Made by a program: the position numbers and the translations under genes. A model generated the notes under the pieces. That model was given only the letters and a program-made list of their open reading frames with translations, was not told where the DNA came from and searched no databases. A stretch of 33,049 bases of DNA from an uncultured Bacteroidales bacterium. GTDB lineage: Bacteria > Bacteroidota > Bacteroidia > Bacteroidales > P3. The stretch lies in contig ONBB01000020.1 of NCBI GenBank assembly GCA_900315935.1, forward strand, positions 1 to 33,049, in the 5' to 3' direction. Positions 1,384 to 21,828 of the stretch are shown here, piece by piece. Numbering within the stretch: position 1 is the first letter of the stretch; each line of letters starts with the position of its first letter.

Positions 1384-2421
1384 ATGAACAACCATATCGT
1401 TATCATGGCCGGTGGCATCGGCAGCCGTTTCTGGCCGTTGAGCACGCCGGAATACCCCAAGCAATTCATTGACATACTGGGCTGTGGGCGCACGCTGATA
1501 CAGCTGACGGTGGACCGGTTCGAGGGCCTGTGCCCGAAGGAGAACTTCTGGGTGGTTACCAACGCCGCATACGTGGACATCGTGAAGGAGCAGCTGCCCG
1601 ACATGCCGGCGAGCCATATCCTGGCCGAGCCAGCAGCGCGCAACACGGCACCCTGCATCGCATGGGCCTGCTGGCGTATCCGACAGGAAGATGCCACGGC
1701 CAATGTGGTGGTAACGCCCGCCGACGCAGTGGTGATGAACCCTGTGGAGTTCCGGCGAGTGCTGGGCAACGCCCTGGCGTTCACGGAGAAGAGCGATGCC
1801 ATCGTTACCGTCGGCATCAAGCCCTCGCGCCCGGAGACGGGGTATGGATATGTGGAAGTGGACAGTGGAAAGCGGGACGCGGGAAGCGGGGAGATACGAC
1901 GTGTGGCCTCCTTCAAGGAGAAACCCTCGCGCGAGGTGGCCGAGCAGTACCTACAAGCGGGCAACTACCTGTGGAACGCCGGAATCTTTGTATGGAACGT
2001 GAACACCATCACGGCGGCACTGTCCACCTACAAGCCCAACATCGCCGCCGACATGGACCGCATGAAGACGGACAGTGATGTGCAGGAGGTGTTCCCTCAG
2101 GTGGAGAAAATCAGCATCGACTACGCGGTAATGGAGCCTGCGGCGGCCGACGGCAAGGTGTATACACACCCTGCCGACTTCGGGTGGAGCGACCTGGGCA
2201 ACTGGGCCTCGCTGCACGACAAACTGCAGAAAGACGGCGCCGGCAACGGAGCGGTGGGTAATGTGCACATGTACGAATGCAGGGACTGCGTGGTGCATGC
2301 CGAGGAGGCGGAGAAGGTTGTCTTGCAGGGGCTTGACGGCTATATCGTCTCGGCCAAAGGCGGTCGCATACTGGTGTGCAAACGCAGCGAGGAGCAGCGC
2401 ATCAAAGAATTCAGCGCCTAG
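1384..2421 (+). CDS. manC: Mannose-1-phosphate guanylyltransferase
   Basis: Makes GDP-mannose from mannose 1-phosphate and GTP in the cytoplasm, feeding capsule, O-antigen, glycoprotein and fucose synthesis. The nucleotidyltransferase signature AGGIGSRFWPLS is at residues 9-20 with KQF at 26-28. EPAARNTAP (82-90), TPADAVV (111-117), ETGYGY (151-156), FKEKP (177-181) and NYLWNAGIF (194-202) follow in the order usual for this family. At 345 residues it is the short form without the C-terminal phosphomannose isomerase domain. Residues 159-170 are encoded by a tandem heptamer array and seem a few residues longer than homologues recalled from Bacteroides. The last 11 bases overlap the converging small membrane protein gene. 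Probably cotranscribed with the UDG-like gene upstream. Confidence 0.93.
   Translation: MNNHIVIMAGGIGSRFWPLSTPEYPKQFIDILGCGRTLIQLTVDRFEGLCPKENFWVVTNAAYVDIVKEQLPDMPASHILAEPAARNTAPCIAWACWRIRQEDATANVVVTPADAVVMNPVEFRRVLGNALAFTEKSDAIVTVGIKPSRPETGYGYVEVDSGKRDAGSGEIRRVASFKEKPSREVAEQYLQAGNYLWNAGIFVWNVNTITAALSTYKPNIAADMDRMKTDSDVQEVFPQVEKISIDYAVMEPAAADGKVYTHPADFGWSDLGNWASLHDKLQKDGAGNGAVGNVHMYECRDCVVHAEEAEKVVLQGLDGYIVSAKGGRILVCKRSEEQRIKEFSA
1859..1893 (+). repeat. In-frame heptamer array inside manC
   Basis: Five consecutive heptamers of the pattern YGGRNNG: TGGACAG, TGGAAAG, CGGGACG, CGGGAAG, CGGGGAG. They encode residues 159-170, in the variable segment between ETGYGY and FKEKP, without breaking the frame. 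The same unit type recurs in ileS, glmM and ispE in the same orientation relative to the gene. Confidence 0.8.
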
Positions 2422-2614
2422 CCTTCCGCTTGCAGGTACAGTTGGCACAGCGGCCCGTCTTGGGGTCGGCGTTGGCGCAGGGACGCTTGAATTCCTTCTC
2501 CCTGCCGAGAAGCATCTTCAGCCCCAGGGCGACCATCAGCAGCGCCACCGCACCGATGGCAACAAAGAGGACTATGAGCAATGTTTTTCCCATCATGGCC
2601 CAATAACGTGCCAT
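2411..2614 (-). CDS. Small single-pass membrane protein with Cys-containing tail
   Basis: A short protein (67 residues from 2614, about 60 from the alternative starts at 2596 or 2593) with one hydrophobic segment, KTLLIVLFVAIGAVALLMVA, then a cytosolic or periplasmic tail FKRPCANADPKTGRCANC ending in basic residues. Small proteins with one membrane helix and an FKRxCA..DP.TG...C tail are common hypothetical proteins in Bacteroidales, which supports a real gene; the role is unknown. The MGK start at 2593 fits the family best. The gene converges on manC and their ends overlap by 11 bases (2411-2421). No clear promoter of its own was found. Confidence 0.7.
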   Translation of the reverse strand: MARYWAMMGKTLLIVLFVAIGAVALLMVALGLKMLLGREKEFKRPCANADPKTGRCANCTCKRKARR

Positions 2615-2714
2615 GTGATGTATTATTGTGCGAAGGGCGGAATTATCCTGGGTATCCCCCACCCTTTTTTTTCGTGGATGCGATTTTTTTCGCTGCCGAT
2701 TCCGAAAAAAGTTG

Positions 2715-2722
2715 TACTTTTG
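2715..2722 (+). promoter_or_regulatory. -7 promoter element of the glycine-lipid operon
   Basis: TACTTTTG followed by CAG, behind AAAAAAGTTG, matches the Bacteroidota consensus. The candidate ATG codons at 2737 and 2746 lie only 14 and 23 bases beyond it, so the leader is very short and has no Shine-Dalgarno site. Confidence 0.85.
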
Positions 2723-2736
2723 CAGTTTGAACGGAA

Positions 2737-3594
2737 ATGCCAACCATGCAACACGAAGAGATTACAGAACGCCATGTAGACGTGGCCAAGATACTGGGTT
2801 CCAAAGGAGTAACCCTGCCGAGGATTGTACTGCGGTGGGTGGAGCGCCTGTTGCATGTGGACGAGATAAACGAGACCATTTACAAGGACCGCCACCTGTT
2901 CGGGCTCGATTTCGTGTATGCATTCACCGAGGGCAAGGAGCCGTGGAACCTGAGCATGACCATCGAGGCGCGCGGCCAGGAGCACATCCCCGCCGAGGGC
3001 AGCCCGATGATAGTGGGCAACCATCCGCTGGGCGGCCCCGACGGGCTGGCGCTGATGGGAGCCGTGGGCAAGGTGCGCCAGGACCTGCAATTCCCCGTTA
3101 CCGACTTCCTGCTCTACCTTCCCGGCCTGAAGGAGCTGTTCGTCCCCATCGACAAGGTGAACAAGAATCACTCCATCGAGGCGCTGGAGAAGGCATTCGC
3201 CGGCCCCAACACGCTGATGTACTACCCCTCCGGCGCCGCCTCGCGCCGCCAGAAGGGCGAGATAAAAGACCTGGAGTGGAAGCCGACGTTCATCAAAAAA
3301 GCCGTCAAGTACCAGCGCGACATAGTGCCCGTGTACACCGACGCGCGCAACCGCAACGTGTTCTACACGGTGGCCAACCTGCGCAAGCGGCTGGGCATCA
3401 AGTTCAGCTACGAGATGGCCATGCTGCCGGCCGAGATGTTTGCCCAGCGCGGCAAGCGCATCGGCATCACCTTCGGGCACCCCATCCCGTGGCAGACCTT
3501 CGACCGCCGCCACAGCGCCGCCGAGTGGGCCGCCCTGCTGCGCGAGCACGTCTACAAACTGAAGGAGAACCCCGAAACGGAATTCGAGTATTGA
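2737..3594 (+). CDS. glsA: Lyso-glycine-lipid O-acyltransferase (PlsC-like), GlsA type
   Basis: Expected to add the second fatty acid to an N-acyl glycine at the inner membrane, giving the diacylated glycine lipids known from Bacteroides. The sequence has the 1-acylglycerol-phosphate acyltransferase fold: GNHPLGGPDGLALMG carries the catalytic His-Asp pair in the HxxxxxD spacing of this branch. FVPIDKVNKN follows, then YPSGAASRR, the substrate block, and DLEWKPTFIKKA. Length is 285 residues from 2737; the ATG at 2746 gives 282 and is equally likely. The next gene, one base downstream, encodes the matching N-acyltransferase, which is the main reason for preferring glycine lipids over glycerophospholipids. 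First gene of a four-gene operon under the promoter at 2715. The substrate (glycine versus ornithine or another amino acid) is inferred from the phylum. Confidence 0.82.
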   Translation: MPTMQHEEITERHVDVAKILGSKGVTLPRIVLRWVERLLHVDEINETIYKDRHLFGLDFVYAFTEGKEPWNLSMTIEARGQEHIPAEGSPMIVGNHPLGGPDGLALMGAVGKVRQDLQFPVTDFLLYLPGLKELFVPIDKVNKNHSIEALEKAFAGPNTLMYYPSGAASRRQKGEIKDLEWKPTFIKKAVKYQRDIVPVYTDARNRNVFYTVANLRKRLGIKFSYEMAMLPAEMFAQRGKRIGITFGHPIPWQTFDRRHSAAEWAALLREHVYKLKENPETEFEY

Positions 3595-3595
3595 T

Positions 3596-4702
3596 ATGGA
3601 CCTTTCGTACATAGCCCCCCCAGTCGACCGCGAGCTCATCAAGAAAGAGCTCAAGCAGAAGCACTTCCTGCGCAAGAGCAACTATGGGAACAAGGAAATC
3701 TATGTTACCACGGCGCGCCTCTCGCCCAACATCATGCAGGAGATAGGCCGCCTGCGCGAATTGAGCTTTGCCACCGACGGCGGCGGCACGGGCAAGCCGG
3801 TCGACATCGATGAGTACGACACGATGGAGGATCCCTACTGCTGCAAACAGCTCTTCGTATGGAGTCCTGAAGACGAGGAAATTATCGGAGCCTACCGATT
3901 TATCCACGGCAGCAACATGATGCGGCGCGAAGACGGTTCCATCGTTACCCCCACGGCCGACCAGTTCCAGTTCAGCGAGGAATTCATCAACAACTACCTC
4001 CCCTACACGGTCGAGCTGGGGCGAGCTTTCGTACAGCCGGCATACCAGCCCGGCAACAACCTGCGCAAGGGCCTCTACAGCCTGGACAACCTGTGGGACG
4101 GCCTCGGCTGCCTCATGCTGGAGATACCCGAGACGCGCTACTTCTTCGGCAAGATTACCATGTACGCCGACCTCGACCAGCTGGCGCGCGACATGATACT
4201 GTTCTTCTACCGCAAGTACTTCCCCGACCGCGACGGCCTCGTGTGGCCTTACGAGCAGTTGGAGATTGAAAGCGACTACAACAAGCTGGTGCGCCACTTC
4301 AATGGACGCAACTACAAAGAGGACTACCAGATACTGTTGCGCTCGGTGCGCGAGCGAGGCTGCACGGTGCCGCCGCTGATCAACGCCTACATGAACCTCA
4401 GCAGCACCATGCGCACCTTCGGCACCTGCCCCAACCACCACCTGGCCGGCACCACCGACACCGGCATCCTCATCACCCTAGGCGACATTTTCCCAGAGAA
4501 GCGCCAACGCTACCTAGAAAGCTACCAAAACAAGAACCCCAAGCTGGACCGCCGGCTGTTCGGCATCAATATGAAGCTGCTGCCGTGGTGGAAGAATGTC
4601 AGCGACGAAGAGATGGTGGCCATGAAGGAGCTCAAGGACCTGAAAAAGAAGCAGCGGGAAATCAAGCAGGAGCTGCGCAAAATCAAACGTTCACGCAAAT
4701 AA
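3596..4702 (+). CDS. glsB: Amino-acid N-acyltransferase (OlsB/hemolysin-like GNAT), GlsB type
   Basis: Predicted to transfer a 3-hydroxyacyl group from acyl carrier protein to the amino group of glycine, the first step of glycine-lipid and commendamide-type lipid synthesis. The 368-residue protein carries the acetyltransferase-like block of the OlsB family: IGRLRELSFATDGGGTG, then a strand with EEIIGAYRFIHG and, after an insert, YTVELGRAFVQPAYQP, where the Glu-Leu-Gly-Arg motif is characteristic. The C-terminal half continues with DGLGCLMLEIP and NHHLAGTTDTGIL and ends in a lysine-rich tail. It starts one base after the glsA stop and ends three bases before engB, so translation is probably coupled. 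Naming follows the B. thetaiotaomicron gene pair; glycine as substrate is inference. Confidence 0.82.
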   Translation: MDLSYIAPPVDRELIKKELKQKHFLRKSNYGNKEIYVTTARLSPNIMQEIGRLRELSFATDGGGTGKPVDIDEYDTMEDPYCCKQLFVWSPEDEEIIGAYRFIHGSNMMRREDGSIVTPTADQFQFSEEFINNYLPYTVELGRAFVQPAYQPGNNLRKGLYSLDNLWDGLGCLMLEIPETRYFFGKITMYADLDQLARDMILFFYRKYFPDRDGLVWPYEQLEIESDYNKLVRHFNGRNYKEDYQILLRSVRERGCTVPPLINAYMNLSSTMRTFGTCPNHHLAGTTDTGILITLGDIFPEKRQRYLESYQNKNPKLDRRLFGINMKLLPWWKNVSDEEMVAMKELKDLKKKQREIKQELRKIKRSRK

Positions 4703-4705
4703 GCC

Positions 4706-5308
4706 ATGATAATCAAGAGCGCCGAATTCTGCATCAGTAGCCCCGACTACAAGAAATGCCCGCAGGACGGGCTTCCGGAATATGCCTTCATCGGCCGTAG
4801 CAATGTCGGCAAGTCGTCGCTTATCAACATGCTTACCTCCAAGAAAGGTCTCGCCAAGACCAGCGGCCGTCCGGGCAAGACGCAGCTGATCAACCATTTC
4901 CTAATCAATAAGGAATGGTACCTGGTCGACCTGCCGGGCTACGGCTATGCCAAGACCTCGAAGAGCTCGCGCGAGAAGTGGGGTCGCATGATGCGCGACT
5001 ATTTCCTGCACCGCGAGGCACTGACCAACGTCTTTGTTCTCATCGACAGCCGCATACCGCCGCAGCGTATCGACCTGGAGTTCATAGAATTCCTTGGCAC
5101 CAACGGTGTGCCGATGTCCATCGTCTACACCAAGACCGACAAGGAGAAGCAGCGCGAAGTGATGGCCAACATCAAGGCCATGAAAGCGGCTTTAAAGGAG
5201 CAGTGGGAGGAACTGCCGCCGATGTTCCTCACCTCGTCGCTCACCGGCTACGGCAGAGACGCCGTGCTGGACTGTATAGATAGTATCAACCAATCATTAC
5301 TGCACTAA
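4706..5308 (+). CDS. engB: Ribosome biogenesis GTP-binding protein EngB/YsxC
   Basis: An essential GTPase that assists late assembly of the large ribosomal subunit. All G motifs are visible in the 200-residue protein: G1 GRSNVGKSS (30-38), the switch threonine in GKTQ (57-60), G3 [11 protein letters not shown] (75-85), G4 TKTD (142-145) and G5 TSS (176-178). Length is normal for the family. It sits between glsB (3 bases upstream) and dacB (4 bases downstream), so it is read from the envelope operon promoter rather than one of its own. Confidence 0.95.
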
Positions 5309-5312
5309 CCTC

Positions 5313-6758
5313 ATGAAAAGAACGATTGCCATAGTGGCTATGTTGCTGACCGCGCTGAATGCGATGGCACAGGCGTCGGAATTGGAACGCCTGGTGAAAG
5401 CCGTACAGAAGGAGAGCGGTATGCAGCATGCCACCTTCTCGGTGTGTGTCTATAATACGACCAAGGGCAAGTCCGTATATTCGCATAATGCGCAGACCGC
5501 GCTGGCCCCCGCTTCGGTGCAGAAACTGCTTACCACTGGTGTCGGCTTCGCCCGCCTAGGGAGCGACTTCCGCTTCACCACCCGCCTGGCCACCAGCGGC
5601 AGGATTGACCGCGAGGGTGTGCTGCACGGCAACGTCTACATCATCGGCGGCGGCGACCCCCTATTAGGATCCTACCGGTACCGCCAGACCGCCCCCGACT
5701 CGCTCTTTGAAGGATGGCACCACGCCCTGAAGAAGAAGGGTATCAGGAATATCAACGGCAAGATATGCTACATCACCAACGTGTTCGACGACCAGCCACT
5801 GCACGACACATGGCAGTGGGGCGATGTGGGCAACTACTACGGAGCCGGCGTCAGCGGGCTGAATTTCCACGAGAACATGTATTTCGTCTACTTCAACCCC
5901 GGCGCCAAACTGGGCTATCCGGCATCGGTGGCGCGCACGCGGCCGCTGAACGCAGGGGTGCAGGAACGCTGCGAGGTTACGACAGGTCCCGAGAACTCGG
6001 GCGACAATGTGGTGATTTACGGTGCCCCGAACAGTCCCGACCGCCTCTACCGCGGCACGGTGCCACTGGGCAAGGCCGACTTTGCGGTGCGAGGAGCGAT
6101 GCCCAATCCGGCACAGCGCTGCGCCGACATGTTCGCTGCACACCTGCGCAGCCACGGTATGCAGGTGGCCCCGTCGGCCATGCATGTGTTTTCGCAGCCC
6201 GACACGCTGCAACCCGTGCTCGACTACTACAGCAGCGACTACTACACCATTGCCCAATACACCAACCTCACCAGCAACAACATCTATGCCGAGTCGATAT
6301 TCAAGTACTTGGGTTATGCCCAATACGGGCGCGGCAGCTATGCCAACGGATCAAGGGCGGTGATGCAGTACCTGCGGGAGCGCAAGCTGGAGACCGGAGG
6401 CCTGCACGTGGTGGACGGCAGCGGCCTGTCGCGCCGCAACCAGGTAACCACCGATTTTCTCTGCCGCTACCTGTGCGACATGGCCAACGAGCCGTTCTTC
6501 TACGACTTCCAGCGCGCACTGGCCGTGGCCGGCGAGAACGGCACCGCGAAGAACCTGCTGCCCAACCTGCCGGTAGGTGTCCGCGTGCACATCAAGACCG
6601 GCTCGATGGAGGGCGTGCGTTCCTATGCCGGCTACGTTACCGCCGCCAACGGCGAGAAGCTGGCCTTCGCCATCATCAGCAACGGGCACGAGTGCAGCTC
6701 CTCGGCGGTGGCCGAGAAGATGAACCGCGTGCTGCAGAAGATTGTCTCCCTCTTTTAG
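5313..6758 (+). CDS. dacB: D-alanyl-D-alanine carboxypeptidase/endopeptidase (PBP4, S13 family)
   Basis: A periplasmic penicillin-binding protein that trims pentapeptides and cleaves D-Ala cross-links in peptidoglycan. The N-terminus is a Sec signal peptide (MKRTIAIVAMLLTALNAMAQ, cleavage likely near A19-Q20). The three catalytic motifs of serine D,D-peptidases are present in order: SVQK at 68-71 with the nucleophile S68, SNN at 321-323 and KTG at 428-430. The 481-residue length and the large insert between the first two motifs fit the PBP4 class. It is the last gene of the glsA-glsB-engB-dacB run and faces mreB, another cell-shape gene, tail to tail. Confidence 0.93.
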   Translation: MKRTIAIVAMLLTALNAMAQASELERLVKAVQKESGMQHATFSVCVYNTTKGKSVYSHNAQTALAPASVQKLLTTGVGFARLGSDFRFTTRLATSGRIDREGVLHGNVYIIGGGDPLLGSYRYRQTAPDSLFEGWHHALKKKGIRNINGKICYITNVFDDQPLHDTWQWGDVGNYYGAGVSGLNFHENMYFVYFNPGAKLGYPASVARTRPLNAGVQERCEVTTGPENSGDNVVIYGAPNSPDRLYRGTVPLGKADFAVRGAMPNPAQRCADMFAAHLRSHGMQVAPSAMHVFSQPDTLQPVLDYYSSDYYTIAQYTNLTSNNIYAESIFKYLGYAQYGRGSYANGSRAVMQYLRERKLETGGLHVVDGSGLSRRNQVTTDFLCRYLCDMANEPFFYDFQRALAVAGENGTAKNLLPNLPVGVRVHIKTGSMEGVRSYAGYVTAANGEKLAFAIISNGHECSSSAVAEKMNRVLQKIVSLF

Positions 6759-6768
6759 CATCCCTTTC

Positions 6769-6802
6769 CCCTGCCACACCAATTGCAAGGGGTGCCGCAG
6801 GG
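6769..6802 (+). terminator. Hairpin behind dacB
   Basis: CCCTGCCACACC (6769-6780) pairs with GGTGCCGCAGGG (6791-6802) with two mismatched positions and a 10-base loop. It lies 10 bases after the dacB stop. No long T-tract follows, so this is only a possible terminator. Confidence 0.4.
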
Positions 6803-6866
6803 TATTATCAACACTACAAACTCAATTTCGGCGCGGTGCGCAAATCCGGCCTCCATGTAACGCAAT

Positions 6867-6900
6867 GAACCCCGAAAGTCAAGCAAGGCTTTCGGGGTTC
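6867..6900. terminator. Perfect hairpin between converging dacB and mreB
   Basis: GAACCCCGAAAG (6867-6878) and CTTTCGGGGTTC (6889-6900) form a perfect 12-bp stem with a 10-base loop. It stands 38 bases beyond the mreB stop and is placed to end the purH-mreB transcript; being symmetric it could also stop readthrough from dacB. No T-tract is present on either side. Confidence 0.65.
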
Positions 6901-6937
6901 GCTGCAGGGGACATCCGCCCAGGCGAAGGGAATGACG

Positions 6938-7963
6938 CTAGCGGATGAGGAAGGAGAATTTGTCGAAATTCTTCAGCGCGATGCCGGTGCCGCGTGCCAC
7001 TGCACGAAGGGGGTCCTCGGCGATGTGGACGGGCAGTTTGGTCTTGCTACTGATGCGCTGGTCGAGGCCGCGCAGCAGGGCTCCGCCACCGGCCAGGTAG
7101 ATGCCGGTCTGGTAAATGTCGGCAGCCAGCTCGGGCGGGGTGGAGGCCAGGGTGTCGAGGATGGCGGTCTCGATGTTGGCGATGGATTTGTCGAGGGCGT
7201 GGGCGATTTCCTTGTAGTTGACGGAAACCTCCTTGGGCAGGCCGGTGAGCTGGTCGCGGCCGTGGGTACGGTAGTCTTCGGGCGGGTCGGACAGCTCGCT
7301 GACCGCAGAGCCAACGGCAATCTTGATATTTTCGGCCATGCGGATGCCGATGAACATGTTGTGATGCTTGCGCATGTAGTCGACGATGTTCTCGTTGAAT
7401 ACATCGCCGGCCACCTTGATGGAGGTGTTGCAGACGATGCCGCCGAGGGAGATGACGGCGATTTCCGCAGTGCCGCCTCCGATGTCGACCACCATGTGTC
7501 CCTGGGGCTGCAGCACGTCGATACCGATACCGATGGCGGCGGCCATAGGTTCGTGAATCATGCGTATTTCCTTGGCGCCGGCCTGTTCGGCGCTTTCGCG
7601 CACGGCACGTTCCTCGACGTTGGTGATGCCGCTGGGGATGCAGATGACCATGCGCAACGAGGGCGGCAGGATGGAGCGGTTGATATTGGCCATGCCGATG
7701 AGCTCACGGATGAGGTACTGGGCCATCTCGAAGTCGGCGATGACGCCGCCGCGTAGCGGGCGCACCACATCGATGTGGTTGTTCTGCGTCTTGCCCTCCC
7801 ATGCCTTGGCTTCCTTGCCGACGGCCATGATTTTGTTGTTCTTACGGTCGATGGCCACCACCGAGGGCTCGTCGATGACCACCTGGTCGTTGTATATCAC
7901 GATGGAGTTGGCGGTGCCAAGGTCCATTGCAATCTCGCGGTTGAAGAATGATAAAAGTCCCAT
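6938..7963 (-). CDS. mreB: Rod-shape-determining actin-like protein MreB
   Basis: A cytoplasmic actin homologue that guides the elongasome along the inner membrane. The 341-residue protein shows the family's blocks in order: AMDLGTANSIVIYND (phosphate 1), PSVVAID, VRPLRGGVIADFE, the ERxAxRxSAEQAGA segment, MIHEPMAAAIGIG and MVVDIGGGTAEIAVISLGGIV (phosphate 2), and TGIYLAGGGALLRGLD near the end. It lies 12 bases after the purH stop, giving the purH-mreB pairing common in Bacteroidales. In that order mreB is normally followed by mreC, mreD and the PBP2/RodA genes; here it is followed by a hairpin and dacB on the opposite strand, so the shape operon is split or shortened. Confidence 0.96.
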   Translation of the reverse strand: MGLLSFFNREIAMDLGTANSIVIYNDQVVIDEPSVVAIDRKNNKIMAVGKEAKAWEGKTQNNHIDVVRPLRGGVIADFEMAQYLIRELIGMANINRSILPPSLRMVICIPSGITNVEERAVRESAEQAGAKEIRMIHEPMAAAIGIGIDVLQPQGHMVVDIGGGTAEIAVISLGGIVCNTSIKVAGDVFNENIVDYMRKHHNMFIGIRMAENIKIAVGSAVSELSDPPEDYRTHGRDQLTGLPKEVSVNYKEIAHALDKSIANIETAILDTLASTPPELAADIYQTGIYLAGGGALLRGLDQRISSKTKLPVHIAEDPLRAVARGTGIALKNFDKFSFLIR

Positions 7964-7975
7964 GTTCCTAATATG

Positions 7976-9466
<1,491 letters not shown>

Positions 9467-9510
9467 TATTATTATTTTATATATGTCATGTATTACTATA
9501 AACTATTGAC

Positions 9511-9534
9511 AATACGCCTCTTGAGAGGAGTATT
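9511..9534 (-). promoter_or_regulatory. Leader hairpin upstream of purH
   Basis: AATACGCCTCT and AGAGGAGTATT form an 11-bp stem with one mismatch around a TG loop. It lies between the promoter and the purH start codon, so it is part of the transcript. No T-tract, alternative pairing or known purine riboswitch core was recognised. Its role may be mRNA stability or control of translation. Confidence 0.45.
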
Positions 9535-9553
9535 GCACAACAGGCACAGACTG

Positions 9554-9561
9554 CAAATATA
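9554..9561 (-). promoter_or_regulatory. -7 promoter element of purH-mreB
   Basis: On the minus strand the sequence reads TATATTTGC after AAAGGTTG, matching TAnnTTTG. It lies 87 bases upstream of the purH start and points toward it. Confidence 0.8.
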
Positions 9562-9647
9562 CAACCTTTTTCTTATCCTGCAAAATCTTTTCAAAAAGTA
9601 AACTTGAAAACGTACACTTTTCTACCCAACTGACAACTGGTATATAA

Positions 9648-12899: not shown

Positions 12900-12931
12900 C
12901 CTCCGTTGCATGCGTGCTCCGGAGGTTTTTT
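12900..12931 (+). terminator. Rho-independent terminator of rpmG-DUF4295
   Basis: CCTCCG (12900-12905) and CGGAGG (12920-12925) form a stem closed by a loop holding GCATGC, and six T residues follow directly. It ends the ribosomal protein operon 41 bases after the DUF4295 stop. Confidence 0.85.
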
Positions 12932-12989
12932 ATACCCCTGTTTTTTTTGTTAAAATTTAGAAAAATTTGGTCGGTTTGAAAAATGGTTG

Positions 12990-12997
12990 TATCTTTG
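12990..12997 (+). promoter_or_regulatory. -7 promoter element of the barrel protein gene
   Basis: TATCTTTG followed by CAT, after AAATGGTTG, matches the consensus. The start codon at 13044 lies 46 bases downstream. An in-frame ATG at 12987 would overlap the promoter and is rejected as a start. Confidence 0.85.
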
Positions 12998-13043
12998 CAT
13001 TTTGAAAGTAACACATTTTATTCACAAAAACACACAATCAAAA

Positions 13044-13682: not shown

Positions 13683-13702
13683 ACCTCGATGAAATTCACT
13701 GG

Positions 13703-13744
13703 TGCGCTGGGCGGCCGCAAGGCCGCCCAGCGCATCTCTTTTTC
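13703..13744 (+). terminator. Strong GC-rich terminator
   Basis: TGCGCTGGGCGGCC (13703-13716) and GGCCGCCCAGCGCA (13721-13734) form a perfect 14-bp stem capped by the stable GCAA tetraloop, followed by a T-rich tail. It ends the barrel protein transcript. Confidence 0.9.
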
Positions 13745-13791
13745 CACCTTCCCGAACTCATCGTTTCCACCCCTTTCGGCGGACAATGGCT

Positions 13792-13865
13792 CATAAGCTT
13801 CCATATCCTTCCAGAGCCTTTGTATTCCCCTACCGTTCCCCTACCATTCCCCTACCATTCCCCCC
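13792..13865 (+). repeat. Dispersed intergenic repeat, copy 1
   Basis: Starts with CATAAGCTTCCATATCCTTC, continues CAGAGCCTTTGTA and ends in tandem 11-base units TTCCCCTACCR: three full units here (one ending G, two ending A) and a partial fourth. The same sequence occurs at 18560-18626 and 24917-24983 in the same orientation, each between two plus-strand genes. The rest of the gap at 13745-13791 has no recognised feature. Confidence 0.9.
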
Positions 13866-13910
13866 GGGCCGCCCGGTGAAAAATCTTTGGCACAATTTGC
13901 AAAAAAGTTG

Positions 13911-13918
13911 TATATTTG
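13911..13918 (+). promoter_or_regulatory. -7 promoter element of ileS
   Basis: TATATTTG followed by TAC, after AAAAAAGTTG, fits TAnnTTTG. The ileS start is at 13986, giving a leader of about 60 bases with no T-box structure recognised. Confidence 0.85.
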
Positions 13919-13985
13919 TACCACGCCACGCGGGTTCCACATCCGCGCAACGTGTTGTATATAAGAATGATACTATTATAATAAT

Positions 13986-16900
13986 ATGAGTTACAAGGAA
14001 TATAAGCAGCTTAATTTGACCCAAATCGGCACCGACATCCGCCGCTACTGGGAGGAAAACGAGACATTCGAGAAGGGCCAGCGCCTGGCCGAGGGGCATG
14101 CCCCATTCGTCTTCTACGACGGCCCGCCGTCGGCCAACGGCAAGCCCGGCATCCACCACGTCATGGCTCGCACCATCAAGGATGTCTTCTGCCGCTACAA
14201 GGCGCAGAAGGGCTTCTACGTGGACCGCAAGGCCGGCTGGGACACCCACGGCCTCCCCGTCGAGCTCGGCGTCGAAAAGAACCTCGGCATCACCAAGGAG
14301 GACATCGGCACCAAGATTTCGGTCGACGAATACAACCAGGCCTGCCGCACCGAAGTGCTCAAGTACAAGGACCTGTGGGACGAGCTGACCCTCCAGATGG
14401 GCTACTGGGTCGACCTCAAGAACCCCTACATCACCTTCGACAACGACTACATTGAGACCCTCTGGTTCCTGCTCAAGAAGCTATACGACAAGGGGCTCCT
14501 CTACAAAGGCTACACCATCCAGCCCTACAGCCCCGCCGCCGGCACCGGCCTCTCCAGCCACGAGCTGAACATGCCCGGCTGCTACCGCGACGTGAAGGAC
14601 ACCACCTGCGTGGCCATGTTCAAGATTTGCGACCAGGACAATACCTACGCTGTTGCGTGGACGACTACGCCGTGGACACTCCCCTCGAACACCGCCCTCT
14701 GCGTGGGACCAAATATCGACTACGTTACCATCGAGACCACCCACCCCATCAAGGAGACCCCCTGCCGCATCATCATGGCCAAGGCGCTGGTGGGCTCGAT
14801 GTTCCCCGAAGGCAAGTCGCCTGAATACACCATCGTGGCCGAGTGCAAGGGCACCGCGCTGGAGGGGCTGCGCTACGAGCAGCTCATCCCCTGGGTGAAG
14901 CCTACGGGCGACGACGCCTTCCGCATCATCCTGGGCGACTACGTTACCACCGAAGACGGCACCGGCATCGTGCACATCGCCCCCACCTTCGGCGCCGACG
15001 ACGCCCGTGTGGCCAAGAAGGCCGGCATCGGCGAGCTGCTGCTCTTCGACCGCGACGGCAAGCGTATGCCCATGGTCGACAAGCAGGGCCGCTTCGCCCC
15101 CATCGAAGACCTTGACCCCGAGTGGGTTCGCGCCAATGTCAACACCGACCTCTACAGCCAGTACGCCGGCAAGTACGTCAAGAACGCCTACGACGCCACC
15201 AAGACCGAGAAGGACATGAGCCTCGACGTGGAGCTGGTCATCATGCTCAAGGGCGAGGGCAAGCTTTTCAAGAGCGAGAAGCACACCCACAGCTACCCCC
15301 ACTGCTGGCGCACCGACAAGCCCGTGCTCTACTATCCGCTCGACAGCTGGTTCATCCGCACCACCGCCCTCAAGGAGCGCATGATAGAGCTGAACAAGAC
15401 CATCAACTGGAAACCCGAAGCCACCGGCAGCGGCCGCTTCGGCAACTGGCTGGAGAACATCGTCGACTGGAACCTCTCGCGCTCGCGCTACTGGGGCACC
15501 CCGCTGCCCATCTGGCGCACCGAGGACGGCCGCGAGGAGAAGTGCATCGGCAGCGTCGAGGAGCTCCGCAAGGAGATAGACAAGGCGGTGGCCGCCGGCC
15601 TCATGCAGGAGAACCCCTATGCCGGCGACTACAACAGCTTCGACCTCCACCGCCCCTATATCGACAACGTGGTCCTCGTCTCCGACAGCGGCAAACCCAT
15701 GCGCCGCGAGACCGACCTCATCGACGTGTGGTTCGACAGCGGCGCCATGCCCTACGCCCAAATCCACTACATGGGCGAGGAGCTGCGCCCCGACCAGTTC
15801 CCGGCCGACTTCATCGCCGAGGGCGTCGACCAGACCCGCGGCTGGTTCTACACCCTCCACGCCATCGCCACCATGTGCTTCGACAGCGTGGCCTTCCGCA
15901 ACGTCGTCTCCAACGGCCTGGTGCTCGACAAGGCCGGCAACAAGATGTCCAAGCGCCTCGGCAACGCCATCGACCCCTTCGAGACCCTCGCCAAGTACGG
16001 CCCCGACGCCACGCGCTGGTACATGATCACCAACTCGCAGCCGTGGGACAACCTCAAGTTCGACGTCGAGGGCGTCGACGAGGTGCGCCGCAAACTCTTC
16101 GGCACCCTCTACAACACCTACTCTTTCTTCGCCCTCTACGCCAACCTCGACGGCTTCGACTACTCGCAGGCCGACCTCCCCGTCGCCGAGCGCCCCGAGA
16201 TTGACCGCTGGATACTCTCCGAGCTCAACACGCTGGTGCGCACCGTGGGCGACGCCTACGAGGACTACGAGCCCACCCGCGCCGGCCGCGCCATCGGCAC
16301 CTTCGTCGACGCATACCTCTCCAACTGGTACGTCCGCCTCTGCCGCCGCCGCTTCTGGAAGGGCGAGATGACCGCCGACAAGGTCTCCGCCTATCAGACC
16401 CTCTACACCTGCCTCGAGACCCTCAGCCGCCTCATGGCCCCCATCGCACCCTTCTTCTCCGAGCGCATGTTCCTCGACCTCAATGCGGGACGTGCGGAAA
16501 GCGGACGGCTGAATGTGGAAAGTGTGCACCATCTGTCGTTCCCCGAATACCACGCCGAGATGGTCGACAAGGCTCTTGAGGAGCGCATGCAGCTGGCCCA
16601 GAAGGTCTGCTCCATGGTGCTCGGCCTGCGCAAGAAGAGCAATATCCGTGTGCGCCAGCCGCTGCAGAAGATTGTCATCCCCGTCCGCGACGAGGCTATG
16701 AAGGCGCAAATCGAGCGTGTGCAGCACCTCATCTGCTCCGAGCTCAACGTCAAGGAGGTGGAGTTCCTTGCCGCCGACAACACCCTGTTGGTCAAAAAGA
16801 TAAAAGCCAACTTCAAGACCCTCGGCCCGCGCTACGGCAAGGTGATGAAGTCCCTCGGCAACGCCATCCTCGCCTTCACGCAGGAGCAAATCAACGCCCT

Positions 16901-17309
16901 CGAGGCCGCCGGCTCGTGCAACGTGGAGGTCGAAGGCCAGGTGTGCGAGGTGCTGCTCTCCGATGTGGAGATTGCCACGCAGGACATCCCCGGCTGGGTG
17001 GTGGCCAACGACGGCGCGCTCACCGTGGCCCTCGACATCACGCTCACGCCCGAGCTCGTCGACGAGGGAATCGCCCGCGAGCTGGTCAACCGCATCCAGA
17101 ACATCCGCAAGGAGGGCTTCGATGTAACCGACCGCATCGTGGTCGAGTTGCAGAGCGGCGAGTGGGATGCCGCCGTGGAACGCCACCGCGACTACATCTG
17201 CAGCGAAACCCTCTGCACCGCACTCACCCTCGTGCCCGAGGTCAGCGGCGGCACCGAGATAGAGATAATCGACGGCCAACCCGCCAACATTGCAATCCGC
17301 AAAGCCTAG
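13986..17309 (+). CDS. ileS: Isoleucyl-tRNA synthetase
   Basis: Charges tRNA-Ile with isoleucine; class I enzyme with an editing domain. The 1107-residue protein has the HIGH-equivalent in GPPSANGKPGIHHVMART (near residue 50) and DRKAGWDTHGLPVELGVEK. The CP1 editing region includes YAVAWTTTPWTLPSN and GIVHIAPTFGADD, and the second signature is AGNKMSKRLGN. WSRSRYWG-like (NLSRSRYWGTPLPIW) and DVWFDSGAMPY follow family order. The C-terminus with the extra domain after VRQPLQKIVIPV is the long form usual in Bacteroidota. Residues 834-846 are encoded by a heptamer array. The TAG stop lies within the first unit of a 9-base tandem repeat shared with the space before the M20 gene. Confidence 0.97.
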   Translation: MSYKEYKQLNLTQIGTDIRRYWEENETFEKGQRLAEGHAPFVFYDGPPSANGKPGIHHVMARTIKDVFCRYKAQKGFYVDRKAGWDTHGLPVELGVEKNLGITKEDIGTKISVDEYNQACRTEVLKYKDLWDELTLQMGYWVDLKNPYITFDNDYIETLWFLLKKLYDKGLLYKGYTIQPYSPAAGTGLSSHELNMPGCYRDVKDTTCVAMFKICDQDNTYAVAWTTTPWTLPSNTALCVGPNIDYVTIETTHPIKETPCRIIMAKALVGSMFPEGKSPEYTIVAECKGTALEGLRYEQLIPWVKPTGDDAFRIILGDYVTTEDGTGIVHIAPTFGADDARVAKKAGIGELLLFDRDGKRMPMVDKQGRFAPIEDLDPEWVRANVNTDLYSQYAGKYVKNAYDATKTEKDMSLDVELVIMLKGEGKLFKSEKHTHSYPHCWRTDKPVLYYPLDSWFIRTTALKERMIELNKTINWKPEATGSGRFGNWLENIVDWNLSRSRYWGTPLPIWRTEDGREEKCIGSVEELRKEIDKAVAAGLMQENPYAGDYNSFDLHRPYIDNVVLVSDSGKPMRRETDLIDVWFDSGAMPYAQIHYMGEELRPDQFPADFIAEGVDQTRGWFYTLHAIATMCFDSVAFRNVVSNGLVLDKAGNKMSKRLGNAIDPFETLAKYGPDATRWYMITNSQPWDNLKFDVEGVDEVRRKLFGTLYNTYSFFALYANLDGFDYSQADLPVAERPEIDRWILSELNTLVRTVGDAYEDYEPTRAGRAIGTFVDAYLSNWYVRLCRRRFWKGEMTADKVSAYQTLYTCLETLSRLMAPIAPFFSERMFLDLNAGRAESGRLNVESVHHLSFPEYHAEMVDKALEERMQLAQKVCSMVLGLRKKSNIRVRQPLQKIVIPVRDEAMKAQIERVQHLICSELNVKEVEFLAADNTLLVKKIKANFKTLGPRYGKVMKSLGNAILAFTQEQINALEAAGSCNVEVEGQVCEVLLSDVEIATQDIPGWVVANDGALTVALDITLTPELVDEGIARELVNRIQNIRKEGFDVTDRIVVELQSGEWDAAVERHRDYICSETLCTALTLVPEVSGGTEIEIIDGQPANIAIRKA
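16486..16522 (+). repeat. In-frame heptamer array inside ileS
   Basis: Degenerate units CGGGACG, (TG), CGGAAAG, CGGACGG, CTGAATG and TGGAAAG are followed by TGTG. They encode residues 834-846 between MFLDLN and HHLSFPEYH, a variable linker after the anticodon-binding bundle. Less regular than the arrays in glmM and ispE. Confidence 0.65.
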
Positions 17310-17340
17310 AAAACCTAGAGAATCTAGAAAATCTAGAAAT
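17305..17340 (+). repeat. 9-base tandem repeat across the ileS stop
   Basis: Four units: CCTAGAAAA, CCTAGAGAA, TCTAGAAAA, TCTAGAAAT. The TAG of the first unit is the ileS stop codon. In the frame of the next gene the array would read as repeated Glu-Asn-Leu, but that gene's start is downstream at 17354. Confidence 0.85.
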
Positions 17341-17353
17341 AGCGACAAAAAAA

Positions 17354-18556: not shown

Positions 18557-18559
18557 GGA

Positions 18560-18626
18560 TTCCATAAGCTTCCATATCCTTCCAGAGCCTTTGTATTCCC
18601 CTACCGTTCCCCTACCATTCCCCTAG
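18560..18626 (+). repeat. Dispersed intergenic repeat, copy 2
   Basis: Begins TTCCATAAGCTTCC four bases after the M20 stop, shares the CAGAGCCTTTGTA middle with copy 1 and ends in two 11-base units (one ending G, one ending A) and TTCCCCTAG. It stands 38 bases before glmM. Confidence 0.9.
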
Positions 18627-18663
18627 AGAACCCCAAGAGTAAAACCATCAAAAAAGACATATC

Positions 18664-20061
18664 ATGAGCCTTATCAAATCCATTTCCGGCATACGCGGCA
18701 CCATCGGCGGCCGCGCTGGCGAGGGCCTGAGCCCTCTCGATGTTGTCAAATTCACTTCGGCATTCGCCACCTTCCTCAAGAACGCTCACCCGGGCCGTCG
18801 CCTCAAGCTGGCCGTAGGTCGCGACGCGCGCCTCTCGGGTGCCATGGTCGACCGCCTCGTGGTGGCCACCCTCCAGGGCATGGGGGTCGACGTACTCGAG
18901 ACCGGCCTCTCCACCACCCCCACCACCGAGATGACCGTTATCGACCACCGCTGCGACGGCGGCATCATCATCACCGCCAGCCACAACCCCAAGCACTGGA
19001 ACGCCCTCAAGTTGCTGAATGCCAGTGGCGAGTTCATCTCCGATGCCGAGGGCAAGGAGGTGCTGCGCCTGGCCGAAAGCGACGAGGTGCTCTTCGCCGA
19101 GGTCGACGACCTGGGGCAGGTCGAGGTGCTGGAGGACGAGATTGACCGCCACATCGAGCGCGTCCTGGCCCTCAAGCTGGTCGACGTGGAGGCCATCCGC
19201 AAGGCCGGATTCAAGGTGGCTGTCGACGCCGTCAACTCCACCGGCGGCCTCGCCATTCCGCGCCTGCTGCGCCGCCTGGGCGTGCAGGAGGTGGTCGAGC
19301 TCAACTGCGACCCCACCGGCCATTTCGCCCACAACCCCGAGCCTATCCCCCAGAACCTGACCGACATATCGCGCGTGGTGCGCGACAACGGCTGCCACCT
19401 CGGCATCGTGGTCGACCCCGATGTGGACCGCCTGGCCCTCGTCTGCGAGGACGGCCAGATGTTCGGCGAGGAATATACCCTGGTGGCGGTGGCCGACTAC
19501 GTGCTGCAGCACACCCCCGGCAACACCGTCTCCAACCTCTCCTCCAGCCGCGCCCTGCGCGACATCACCAACCGCTACCCGGGCTGCACATACGCCGCCT
19601 CGGCCGTGGGCGAGGTGAATGTTACCACCCTGATGAAGGAAACCCATGCCGTCATCGGCGGCGAGGGCAACGGCGGCGTCATCTACCCCGAGCTGCACTA
19701 CGGCCGCGACGCCCTGGTCGGCGTAGCCCTCTTCCTCACCCTCCTGGCACAGAAGGGCATGAAGGTCAGCGACCTGCGCCGCACCTACCCCGAGTACATC
19801 ATCTCCAAGAACCGCAAGGACCTCACACCCGACATGGATGTCGATGCCCTGCTGGCCAAGGTCGCCAAGTTCTATCAAGTGGAAAGTGAAAAGTGGAAAG
19901 TGGAAAGTGTGAACACCATTGACGGCGTGAAGATTGACTTCGCCGACGGCTGGGTGCACCTCCGCAAGTCCAACACCGAGCCCATCATCCGCATCTACTC
20001 CGAGGCCGCCAACGAACAGCGCGCCAACGAGCTGGCGCAGCAGGTGATGCAGCAGATATGA
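18664..20061 (+). CDS. glmM: Phosphoglucosamine mutase (alpha-D-phosphohexomutase)
   Basis: Converts glucosamine 6-phosphate to glucosamine 1-phosphate for UDP-GlcNAc and thus cell-wall synthesis. The 465-residue protein has ISGIRGTIGG at the start, the phosphoserine loop GIIITASHNPKHWNALKLL (serine in TASHNP), the Mg site DPDVDRLAL, the sugar loop GEGNGGVIYPELHYGRDAL and the phosphate-binding RKSNTEPIIRIYSEA near the C-terminus. A phosphomannomutase role cannot be excluded from motifs alone, but Bacteroidota proteins with this N-terminus are called GlmM. Residues 406-415, just before the last domain, come from a TGGAAAG heptamer array and appear to be an extra loop. phoH follows 13 bases after the stop. 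Confidence 0.9.
   Translation: MSLIKSISGIRGTIGGRAGEGLSPLDVVKFTSAFATFLKNAHPGRRLKLAVGRDARLSGAMVDRLVVATLQGMGVDVLETGLSTTPTTEMTVIDHRCDGGIIITASHNPKHWNALKLLNASGEFISDAEGKEVLRLAESDEVLFAEVDDLGQVEVLEDEIDRHIERVLALKLVDVEAIRKAGFKVAVDAVNSTGGLAIPRLLRRLGVQEVVELNCDPTGHFAHNPEPIPQNLTDISRVVRDNGCHLGIVVDPDVDRLALVCEDGQMFGEEYTLVAVADYVLQHTPGNTVSNLSSSRALRDITNRYPGCTYAASAVGEVNVTTLMKETHAVIGGEGNGGVIYPELHYGRDALVGVALFLTLLAQKGMKVSDLRRTYPEYIISKNRKDLTPDMDVDALLAKVAKFYQVESEKWKVESVNTIDGVKIDFADGWVHLRKSNTEPIIRIYSEAANEQRANELAQQVMQQI
19880..19907 (+). repeat. In-frame heptamer array inside glmM
   Basis: TGGAAAG, TGAAAAG, TGGAAAG, TGGAAAG: three exact units and one with a single change. They encode VESEKWKVES at about residues 406-415. 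The flanking protein sequence, VAKFYQ before and VNTIDGVKIDFADGWVHLRK after, is conserved. Confidence 0.9.
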
Positions 20062-20074
20062 TTCCCCCCACAGC

Positions 20075-21061
20075 ATGAATGAACCGTCAATAGAGAAGAT
20101 ATTTTCGCTGGAAGAACTTGATTATGCGCGCTTTTGGGGCACCAACGACCGCATGCTCGACTTCGTGCGCCTGCTCTTCCCCAAACTCAAGCTCATCGCC
20201 CGCGGCGAGATGCTGAAGGCCATCGGGTCGGAAGAGGACATCGTCTGGTTCGAGGGCAAGCTGCAGGCCATGATGACCTACTTCGACAAGTTCGGCCGCC
20301 TGACCGAGAACGCCGTGATGCAAATCATGGAGAGCGGCGGCAGCAGCCCCGAGGCCGAGGTGAGCGACGAGATACTGGTCCACGGCCGCAACGGCCTCCT
20401 CATCAAGGCCCGCACCCCCAACCAGCAACGGCTGGTGCGCTCGGTGTTCGAGAACGACATGGTCTTCGCCATCGGCCCCGCCGGTACGGGCAAGACCTAC
20501 ACCGCCGTCGCCATGGCCGTGCGCGCGTTGAAGAACAAGGAGATACGCCGCATCATACTGACACGTCCCGCCGTGGAGGCCGGCGAGAACCTGGGCTTCC
20601 TGCCCGGCGACCTGCGCGACAAGCTGGACCCCTACCTGCAGCCCCTATACGACGCCCTGCGCGACATGATACCGCAGCAGAAACTGCTCTCCTACTGGGA
20701 GGACAACACCATCGAGATTGCGCCGCTGGCTTTCATGCGCGGCCGCACGCTGGACAACGCCTTCGTCATCCTCGACGAGGCGCAGAACGCCACCAGTGCC
20801 CAGTTGAAGATGTTCCTCACCCGCATGGGCCGCAACGCCAAGTTCGTCATCACCGGCGACCTCACCCAGGTCGACCTGCCGCGCCACCAGCAGAGCGGCC
20901 TCCTCCAGGCTACGCAGATACTGAAAGACGTCAAAGGCATCGACATCATCCAGCTGGACAAGAGCGACGTCATCCGCCACCGGCTTGTTACCGACATCAT
21001 CCGCGCCTACGATGAAATCAAGGAGACAGGCGACAAGGAGTTAAGGAGTCAAGACAAATGA
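20075..21061 (+). CDS. PhoH-family ATPase (YbeZ type)
   Basis: A cytoplasmic P-loop ATPase whose relatives are linked to RNA and ribosome quality control, often beside YbeY. The Walker A motif is GPAGTGKTYTAVAMAV (central), followed by LTRPAVEAGENLGFLPGDL, the Walker B AFVILDEAQNATSAQLKMFLTRMG and the sensor segment VITGDLTQVDLPRHQQSGL, all characteristic of PhoH. The 328-residue length and the N-terminal RNA-binding-like part fit. The C-terminal residues after EIKETGDK derive from an 8-base repeat and the stop TGA overlaps the ispE ATG (ATGA at 21058-21061). No ybeY gene is adjacent. The start at 20075 is supported by the short gap to glmM. Confidence 0.92.
   Translation: MNEPSIEKIFSLEELDYARFWGTNDRMLDFVRLLFPKLKLIARGEMLKAIGSEEDIVWFEGKLQAMMTYFDKFGRLTENAVMQIMESGGSSPEAEVSDEILVHGRNGLLIKARTPNQQRLVRSVFENDMVFAIGPAGTGKTYTAVAMAVRALKNKEIRRIILTRPAVEAGENLGFLPGDLRDKLDPYLQPLYDALRDMIPQQKLLSYWEDNTIEIAPLAFMRGRTLDNAFVILDEAQNATSAQLKMFLTRMGRNAKFVITGDLTQVDLPRHQQSGLLQATQILKDVKGIDIIQLDKSDVIRHRLVTDIIRAYDEIKETGDKELRSQDK
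21035..21055 (+). repeat. 8-base tandem repeat at the phoH 3' end
   Basis: AAGGAGTT and AAGGAGTC, followed by AAGAC. They encode the last residues of PhoH and also supply an AAGGAG Shine-Dalgarno-like sequence 9 bases before the ispE start at 21058. Confidence 0.6.
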
Positions 21062-21828
21062 TTTCTTTCCCCAACTGTAAGATAAACCTCGGCCTGCATG
21101 TCGTCGGCAAGCGTCCCGACGGCTACCACGACCTGGAGACCCTCTTCCTTCCGGTGATGGAGCTCTGCGACGAGTTGGAGATTGTCGAGGGACCGCTAGC
21201 GATGCATCAGGACGGCATCGCCCTGGACAACACCCCCGAGGACAACCTCTGCATGAAAGCCTGGCGGCTGCTGCACGACGAGTTTGGCATCCCCTCCGTT
21301 ACCATCCGGCTGAAGAAGGGCATACCCTTCGGCGCCGGCCTTGGCGGCGGCTCTTCGGATGCCGCCTTCACGCTGAAGATGCTCAACGGGATGTTCTCGT
21401 TAGGTCTGGAAGACAGTCAGTTGGAGCAACGTGCCGCACGACTGGGAGCCGACTGCGCCTTCTTCATCCGCAACCGCGCCGCCTACGCCACGGGCATCGG
21501 CGACCAGTTGGAACCCATCGAGTGGGAAGTGGGAAGTGGAAAGTGGAAAGTTGTAATAGAGATTCCCGAAGGAGAGCATGTGAGCACCAAGGAGGCATAC
21601 ACCGGTTTGCAACGCGACCTTTTCGGCTGCCCACGTCCAGACCTCCGCGAAGCCATCCACCGCCCCATCGAGGAGTGGCGCAACTTGATAGTCAACGACT
21701 TCGAGGAATCCGTATTTCCCTCCCACCCTGCCATTGCGGCATTGAAAGAAGAGATGTACCGCCGAGGCGCCCTCTATGCCAGCATGACCGGCAGCGGTGC
21801 CGCCGTGTTCGGCATCTTCCCCAAATAA
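21058..21828 (+). CDS. ispE: 4-diphosphocytidyl-2-C-methyl-D-erythritol kinase
   Basis: Phosphorylates CDP-methylerythritol in the non-mevalonate isoprenoid pathway. GHMP kinase family: FPNCKINLGLHVVGKRPDGYHDLETLF at the N-terminus, the phosphate-binding loop IPFGAGLGGGSSDAAFTLK, ADCAFFIRNRAAYATGIGD and the C-terminal MTGSGAAVFGIF. Length 256 residues is slightly short but complete. Residues 156-165 (EVGSGKWKVV region) are encoded by a heptamer array and replace or lengthen a loop before the EGEHVSTKEAY strand. Translation is probably coupled to phoH through the ATGA overlap; the AAGGAG repeats could act as its ribosome-binding site. Confidence 0.93.
   Translation: MISFPNCKINLGLHVVGKRPDGYHDLETLFLPVMELCDELEIVEGPLAMHQDGIALDNTPEDNLCMKAWRLLHDEFGIPSVTIRLKKGIPFGAGLGGGSSDAAFTLKMLNGMFSLGLEDSQLEQRAARLGADCAFFIRNRAAYATGIGDQLEPIEWEVGSGKWKVVIEIPEGEHVSTKEAYTGLQRDLFGCPRPDLREAIHRPIEEWRNLIVNDFEESVFPSHPAIAALKEEMYRRGALYASMTGSGAAVFGIFPK
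21523..21550 (+). repeat. In-frame heptamer array inside ispE
   Basis: TGGGAAG, TGGGAAG, TGGAAAG, TGGAAAG: two pairs of identical units. They encode about residues 156-165, between the conserved ATGIGDQLEPI and EGEHVST blocks. Confidence 0.9.

What the first reader, a model, noticed from the sequence alone, without database searches (positions are those of the whole stretch)
1859..21550. TGGAAAG-type heptamers inserted in frame in four essential enzymes
Sequence shows tandem heptamers at 1859-1893 (manC), 16486-16522 (ileS), 19880-19907 (glmM) and 21523-21550 (ispE). All have the form YGGRAAG or close to it, all lie in the same orientation relative to the gene, and none breaks the frame. Each falls between conserved blocks, in a probable surface loop, and yields a Gly/Ser/Lys/Trp-rich peptide such as SGKWKV. 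A seven-base unit moves through all three frames, so it is not explained by selection for a peptide repeat. Inference: a slippage- or insertion-prone element is tolerated in loops and may be a genome-wide source of protein length variation.
Basis: partly seen in the sequence, partly recalled or inferred. Interest (0 to 1): 0.8.

Follow-up and report, generated by a model that had tools for sequence, protein, structure and literature searches.

The report
Loop-filling heptamer repeats in rumen Bacteroidales
In a genus of uncultured gut Bacteroidales, families of short DNA repeats (mostly 7 letters long) sit in frame in loops of housekeeping enzymes, and different species fill the very same loop with different repeats, so these loops change faster than the rest of the gene.

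Summary
The heptamers are real and beyond chance: 13 near-matches to the doubled unit in the window vs 2.04 expected; 41 exact doubled YGGRAAG in the genome vs 0 for the reversed pattern. glmM and ispE are clear arrays, manC is degenerate, ileS is decayed (clean in relatives). They are not precise insertions: each replaces part of a loop, with net gains of a few codons. They are one of several tandem families (7-nt, also 8 and 11) whose abundance varies strongly between species of the genus. In an own-genome sample, units with stops in both orientations lie between genes (10 of 11 such arrays) and units with a stop-free orientation in genes (22 of 23). In ispE, one loop holds at least six different units in different species, and two further loops behave alike. 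In two contigs about 95% identical, three loops of two genes are replaced while flanks match. Best reading: dispersed short tandem repeats spread by copying and slippage; selection keeps those that stay in frame in tolerant loops. The copying step is inferred; no enzyme is known. New variant of a known kind.

The parts
1859..1893 (+). degenerate heptamer array in the manC-like gene (TGGACAG TGGAAAG CGGGACG CGGGAAG CGGGGAG)
   Evidence: relatives hold other repeats or native sequence in this loop
1384..2421 (+). manC-like nucleotidyltransferase gene, 345 aa
16486..16522 (+). decayed heptamer array in ileS, +3 aa against native homologues
   Evidence: clean copy in L268; not found by TRF
13986..17309 (+). 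ileS, isoleucine--tRNA ligase, 1107 aa
19877..19909 (+). heptamer array (TGGAAAG) in glmM, residues 405-416: end of helix 393-406, turn, start of strand 413-417 in the predicted fold
18664..20061 (+). glmM-type phosphoglucosamine mutase gene, 465 aa
21521..21551 (+). heptamer array (TGGGAAG/TGGAAAG) in ispE, called loop 2 here; +2 aa against the native form
21058..21828 (+). ispE, CDP-methylerythritol kinase, 256 aa
144..169 (+). intergenic heptamer array GAGTTAT (stops in both orientations)
22973..23019 (+). intergenic heptamer array TAACTCT, 6.7 copies (stops in both orientations)

Best explanation
The four arrays belong to one of several dispersed short tandem-repeat families (units mostly 7 nt, some 8 or 11) that multiply in this genus of uncultured gut Bacteroidales. 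Species differ strongly in which units they are rich in. SHOWN: the same units recur in distant stretches of the genome; units with stops in both orientations lie between genes and units with a stop-free orientation lie in genes; the same enzyme loops hold different repeats in different species and in near-identical alleles, in place of native sequence. INFERRED: new copies arise by copying from other arrays during replication or repair (template switching at short homologies, or gene conversion between arrays), grow and shrink by slippage, and survive in genes only when they keep the frame and fall in a tolerant loop or, in the hydrophobic orientation, in places such as signal peptides. The loop peptide probably has no selected function.
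For: Own-genome sample of 427,494 bases (window included): exact period-7 runs of 10 or more number 34, period 11 also 34, against 6, 4 and 0 at periods 8, 10 and 13; without the window and the array-rich stretch L140, 25 and 30 against 6, 4 and 0. Same unit in different stretches: 15 pairs vs mean 0.53, largest 7, in 2000 draws of random genomic heptamers, each unit counted once per stretch; 11 vs 0.31 (largest 4) without window and L140; 28 vs 0.73 uncollapsed. Location: 22 of 23 genic arrays have a stop-free orientation, 10 of 11 intergenic ones have stops both ways, Fisher p 8.9e-7. Strict YGGRAAG arrays: 21 sense, 4 antisense, binomial p 0.0009; 18 of the 23 outside the window are sense in an ORF with a Pfam match. 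ispE, 78 genomes: period-7 runs of 8 or more in loop 1 of 6, loop 2 of 15, loop 3 of 4. Contigs L257/L258: median identity of ungapped 30-nt windows 1.0, yet the manC loop, ispE loop 1 and ispE loop 3 are replaced. L044/L060 (91.5% over 5,047 nt): L060 glmM has +15 and +8 aa absent from L044, coded by octamer repeats (by eye), and two heptamer arrays just downstream differ in length. Doubled YGGRAAG: 0-227 in the 120 genomes of the genus, 0-4 in 70 of other genera.
Against: No de novo event was seen; one genome per species is held, so there is no strain series. Native ileS and glmM already contain GTGGAGA-like codons at the array edge, which local slippage could have used. In L257/L258 ispE loop 2 is the same native form in both. 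All 25 strict arrays lie in ORFs, but called ORFs cover 91% of the sample, so this alone is not significant. Gene calls were by a longest-ORF rule, and 4 of 23 genic arrays have a stop in the assigned gene sense. The ispE core tree has many low supports, so gain, loss and exchange cannot be ordered. Close pairs L068/L071 and L053/L059 showed replaced blocks but no heptamers. L257 lies in a bin with about 5% contamination and two ispE genes. No copying enzyme was identified.
Confidence: 0.7

Rival explanations
1. Purely local polymerase slippage: each array grew from a TGGARAG-like codon string already in the gene, as proposed for heptamers in general.
For: Native ileS has GTGGAGAGC and native glmM GTGGAGAAG at the array edge (by eye); slippage tied to a 7-nt polymerase contact is proposed in the literature (passages of PMC4679880, and PMC4692102). 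Array length differences are seen downstream of glmM in L044/L060.
Against: Same units in distant stretches (15 vs 0.53 pairs); net changes of +6, +9 and +12 nt are not multiples of 7; the native ispE loop has no such seed (by eye). The own genome has MutS, and MutS-negative genomes are not significantly richer in the four counted units (10 vs 110 genomes, medians 92.5 vs 26, p 0.16; leaving out G051 and G114 afterwards for low completeness gives p 0.033).
Confidence: 0.2
2. A dedicated writing system (mobile element, nuclease or polymerase) inserts or exchanges repeats at loops.
For: Replacement in place with near-identical flanks; species differ in their units; a DUF559 nuclease-like domain lies inside one loop insert of ispE, and the own genome has two DUF559 matches.
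Against: No reverse-transcriptase match (PF00078) in the own genome; DUF559 sits with palindromic repeats, not heptamers; no target-site signature was looked for systematically, and only MutS was compared with array number.
Confidence: 0.1
3. Selection for the repeat-coded peptide (a functional loop).
For: Array carriers at ispE loop 2 have similar length: 12 of 15 have 23 or 24 residues in the compared segment.
Against: The same loop holds different peptides (WEVGSGKWKV, FSIFNFQFSI, FLTPHSSFLI) or the native one; the same unit occurs in many unrelated genes.
Confidence: 0.04
4. Assembly or binning artefact at repeats.
For: Comparison genomes are largely uncultured bins; L257 is probably foreign to its bin (mutS stretches of G030 and G075 only 72% alike).
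Against: The frame is open through the five ispE genes printed, up to 589 codons; the pattern recurs in many bins and in named assemblies.
Confidence: 0.04

Closest known systems
Heptameric short tandem repeats: TAACTGA repeats of Beggiatoaceae, cyanobacteria and five Bacteroidetes (PMC4679880) and GGGNATC repeats of Xanthomonas and Nostoc (PMC4692102)
   Same: 7-nt tandem units, many dispersed copies, units restricted to certain lineages, stop content of the unit limits where it can sit; PMC4679880 also reports repeats inside or overlapping 25 ORFs, mostly at protein ends.
   Different: Other unit sequences, mainly intergenic there (68% in Nostoc, PMC4692102 passage). Here the 25 strict YGGRAAG arrays lie in ORFs, the four of the window inside enzymes, and one loop is reused by different units.
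Rickettsia palindromic elements (RPE), as reviewed in PMC2229807
   Same: Repetitive DNA fused in frame into conserved genes and tolerated.
   Different: RPE are 105-146 bp with inverted repeats; the window's arrays are about 28-37 bp of direct heptamers. The palindromic inserts in ispE of G030, G021 and G043 look closer; membership was not tested.
Phase-variation (contingency) loci with simple sequence repeats
   Same: Short tandem units in coding DNA.
   Different: The frames examined here stay open, and the genes are housekeeping enzymes rather than surface antigens (the latter trait is recalled).

Membership tests
Dispersed heptameric tandem repeats (STRR/LSSR kind) | tandem 7-nt units in excess over neighbouring periods | tested here: met
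   periods 7 and 11 = 34 each vs 6 (8) and 4 (10), 80 named loci, runs of 11 or more: 70 (7) and 51 (11) vs 10 (8) and 5 (10)
Dispersed heptameric tandem repeats (STRR/LSSR kind) | same unit at many separate loci | tested here: met
   (25 arrays on 15 contigs)
Dispersed heptameric tandem repeats (STRR/LSSR kind) | mainly intergenic (usual, in my view not defining) | tested here: not met
   strict YGGRAAG: 0 of 25 intergenic; all period-7 runs of the sample: 11 of 34 intergenic
TAACTGA repeats (PMC4679880) | unit TAACTGA | tested here: not met
   not among the 34 period-7 runs listed; the whole genome was not searched for it
Rickettsia palindromic elements | 100-150 bp element with terminal inverted repeats | tested here: not met
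   the four arrays are about 28-37 bp of direct repeats
Phase-variation loci | copy-number change switches the reading frame on and off | tested here: inconclusive
   of the rows listed (capped list) and 56 only one ispE fragment (G054) has a stop inside; no population data
Retroelement-templated diversification (DGR-like) | reverse transcriptase in the genome | tested here: not met
   no PF00078 match in G000 (96.6% complete); 46 of 120 genus genomes have one

The most novel reading that the evidence does not exclude
The genus has an active process that rewrites loop-encoding DNA of core enzymes in place, swapping one repeat family for another between near-identical flanks, so that repeat families act as a genome-wide loop-diversifying system rather than as passive slippage products.
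Probability: 0.13. Interest if true: 0.88.

Novelty: new variant of a known kind. Interest (0 to 1): 0.62.

Why it matters
It shows short non-triplet repeats serving as raw material for protein loops in core metabolism, with turnover fast enough to be read between alleles about 95% identical. It gives a countable system (one genus, 120 genomes, a few units per species) in which to test how dispersed heptamers spread, which the papers seen here leave open. It also warns that loop indels in these genomes are poor phylogenetic characters.

Tried and rejected
MutS loss as cause: own genome has MutS; no significant difference. Reverse transcriptase: none in the own genome. ispE structure from a single sequence: mean pLDDT 37.7, not used. 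ispE core tree to order gains and exchanges: many weak branches, not used for a claim of direction. Close named pairs: L053/L059 gave three replaced blocks and L068/L071 two, none with heptamers (one has an 11-nt repeat, one looks like a palindromic insert); L044/L060 gave five, one of which is a run of N. In one search most of the listed blocks come from L257 about 2,560-7,340, which has no BLAST match in L258 and was aligned only by force; only the matching part from about 7,340 on was used, and it also holds a 256-bp gap at about 7,624 that I did not study. Literature searches listed no paper on heptamer arrays in loops of housekeeping enzymes of Bacteroidales; most subscription papers are not held. 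Papers: PMC4679880 (abstract, passages, sections 12 and 15); PMC4692102, PMC2229807 and PMC6749651 (passages only); others in listings only. Mrazek 2007 and Ogata 2000 were known only through those papers and recall.
Full report
What is there. The window (G000:C31 of a 2.29 Mb, 31-contig genome) holds four stretches of TGGAAAG-like heptamers in gene sense: manC-like 1859-1893, ileS 16486-16522, glmM 19880-19907 and ispE 21523-21550. glmM and ispE are clear arrays, manC is weak, and ileS is not reported by Tandem Repeats Finder. The window has 13 near-matches to the doubled unit against a mean of 2.04 in 100 shuffles. In the four genes exact YGGRAAG occurs 11 times, only inside these stretches and only in sense. 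The genome has 41 exact doubled YGGRAAG and 0 of the reversed pattern. The 80 best named relatives of glmM (of 264) are Bacteroidales or Bacteroidetes records, many with rumen or other gut sites in their titles.

Where the genome's arrays sit. The 41 matches make 25 arrays on 15 contigs (merged by hand). Longest-ORF analysis with Pfam puts all 25 in ORFs: 21 in sense (18 with a Pfam match outside the window, 1 without, L011, and 2 in the window) and 4 in antisense (L006, L014, L025, L028); p 0.0009. Both strands were scanned with Pfam at six places (L006, L007, L014, L018, L025, L142), and each time only one strand matched. Since called ORFs cover about 91% of the sample, 25 of 25 is not by itself significant. 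Genes include alaS, serS, purL (two arrays, probably one gene), a SpoU methylase, Mur ligases, thiamin pyrophosphokinase and tex. Sense reads WKVESGK and antisense LSTFHFP, neither with a stop. Two of the four antisense arrays (L025, L028) fall, by eye from the sequence, in what look like signal peptides; no predictor was run. A filter on peptide character would explain the bias (inference).

Other units. In 427,494 bases of own sequence (window included) periods 7 and 11 stand out with 34 runs each, against 6, 4 and 0 at 8, 10 and 13; periods that are multiples of 7 or 11, and multiples of 3 from 9 on, are also raised, as expected from the arrays themselves and from codons. The excess stays when the window and the array-rich stretch L140 are left out. 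Units are shared between stretches beyond chance: 15 pairs vs 0.53, each unit counted once per stretch. Of 23 runs in genes, 22 have a stop-free orientation; of 11 between genes, 10 have stops both ways (p 8.9e-7); examples of the latter are GAGTTAT at 144-169 and TAACTCT at 22973-23019. Gene calls were simple, and 4 of the 23 genic runs have a stop in the assigned sense.

Across the genus. Doubled YGGRAAG counts run from 0 to 227 in the 120 genomes of the genus and 0 to 4 in 70 of other genera of the family. Other species are rich in TTCTCAA (up to 178), TTTCACC (up to 122) or TTTTCAA (up to 197). On the sum of the four, 27 of 120 genomes have 2 or fewer and 43 have 50 or more.

The loops. 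ispE: 108 of 120 genus genomes had a match, and 78 were fetched and compared (G054, with a broken frame, was fetched and left out). The window's loop carries a period-7 run of 8 or more in 15 of 78. The nine unit classes make at least six different units: TGGRAAG, ATTCTCA, TTTTCAA, TCGAAAT, CCTCATT/ACTCCTC and AAGAATG. Some are one base apart (TTTTCAA and TTCTCAA). Of the 63 others, 40 have a 21-residue segment, two shorter than the own one. Two other ispE loops carry such runs in 6 and 4 genomes, and long palindromic inserts in a few. manC (30 loci, own included, of 120 matched): TGGTCAG in G088, TGGAAAG in G105, GAGAGCG in G021; by eye, octamers in G091 and G075 and palindromes in G043 and G030. 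ileS (the 30 best of the genus, own included, plus two named loci): five share a +3 aa array form (own, G097, G120, G043, G093), clean in G043 and decayed in the own genome; L031 looks like a shorter remnant; 26 are native. glmM (80 named homologues): 79 are shorter than the own loop segment, one (L108) is equally long with another sequence, and none has a period-7 run above 6 there. A predicted glmM model (mean pLDDT 82) places residues 405-416 from the end of a helix to the start of a strand.

Replacement in near-identical alleles. Contigs G030:C20 (L257) and G075:C19 (L258) match at 93-97% identity in blocks totalling 4,965 bases, including manC through ispE; elsewhere they differ. In the matching part the median identity of ungapped 30-nt windows is 1.0, yet the manC loop, ispE loop 1 and ispE loop 3 share little or nothing, while ispE loop 2 is the same native form. 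In loop 1 four ACTACCC heptamers face a palindrome; in loop 3 TTTCACC-type heptamers face an in-frame insert of about 960 bp with five palindromic repeats and a DUF559 domain. A repeat with 11-nt unit between manC and ispE differs by 11 nt. L257 is probably foreign to its bin, which does not affect the comparison of the two contigs. In named assemblies, L060 and L044 (91.5%): L060 glmM has two in-frame gains, 15 and 8 aa, in other loops, absent from L044.

Reading. The arrays are dispersed repeat families that enter, change and decay in tolerant loops. Net changes that are not multiples of 7, and shared units in distant stretches, speak against purely local slippage; copying between arrays plus slippage fits best but is inferred. 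MutS loss and reverse transcriptase do not explain it.

Known relatives. Heptameric tandem repeats are known from cyanobacteria, Beggiatoaceae, Xanthomonas and a few Bacteroidetes (PMC4679880, PMC4692102), and in-frame repeat insertion into conserved genes is known from Rickettsia (reviewed in PMC2229807). Loops of core enzymes reused by different repeat families were not found in the eight searches listed. I file it as a new variant of a known kind.

Noticed in passing
L174:1061-2827 (G030:C20): ispE frame of 589 codons with five near-identical palindromic repeats and a DUF559 nuclease-like domain (Pfam E 1.4e-27) inserted in frame in loop 3.
   Followed up: partly
window 28782-29588 (-), about 29200-29345: ORF without Pfam or NCBIfam match holds a stretch (TPSPLRGTPPNLGGE ... 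SSPKLGEG) that resembles the palindromic inserts in ispE of G021, G030 and G043; no homologues compared.
   Followed up: no
window 13824-13863, 18595-18625, 24952-24982: The same 11-mer tandem (ATTCCCCTACC) occurs at three places in the window; period 11 is as enriched as period 7 in the genome sample.
   Followed up: partly
window 17301-17339: Nine-base tandem (AAAACCTAG) around and after the ileS stop codon.
   Followed up: no
window 31705-31848: 41-base tandem repeat, 3.5 copies.
   Followed up: no
one search places, e.g. G016:C6:1509(-)/1544(+), G025:C50:39740(-)/39782(+): Some heptamer arrays lie in inverted pairs a few tens of bases apart and could form hairpins; not counted.
   Followed up: no
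G048:C17:90977-91246: A second MutS_I match of this genome lies inside an open frame of 6205 codons.
   Followed up: no
G026, G046, G052, G101, G124: No MutS_I match in these array-rich genomes; over all 10 negatives the difference in array number is not significant.
   Followed up: partly
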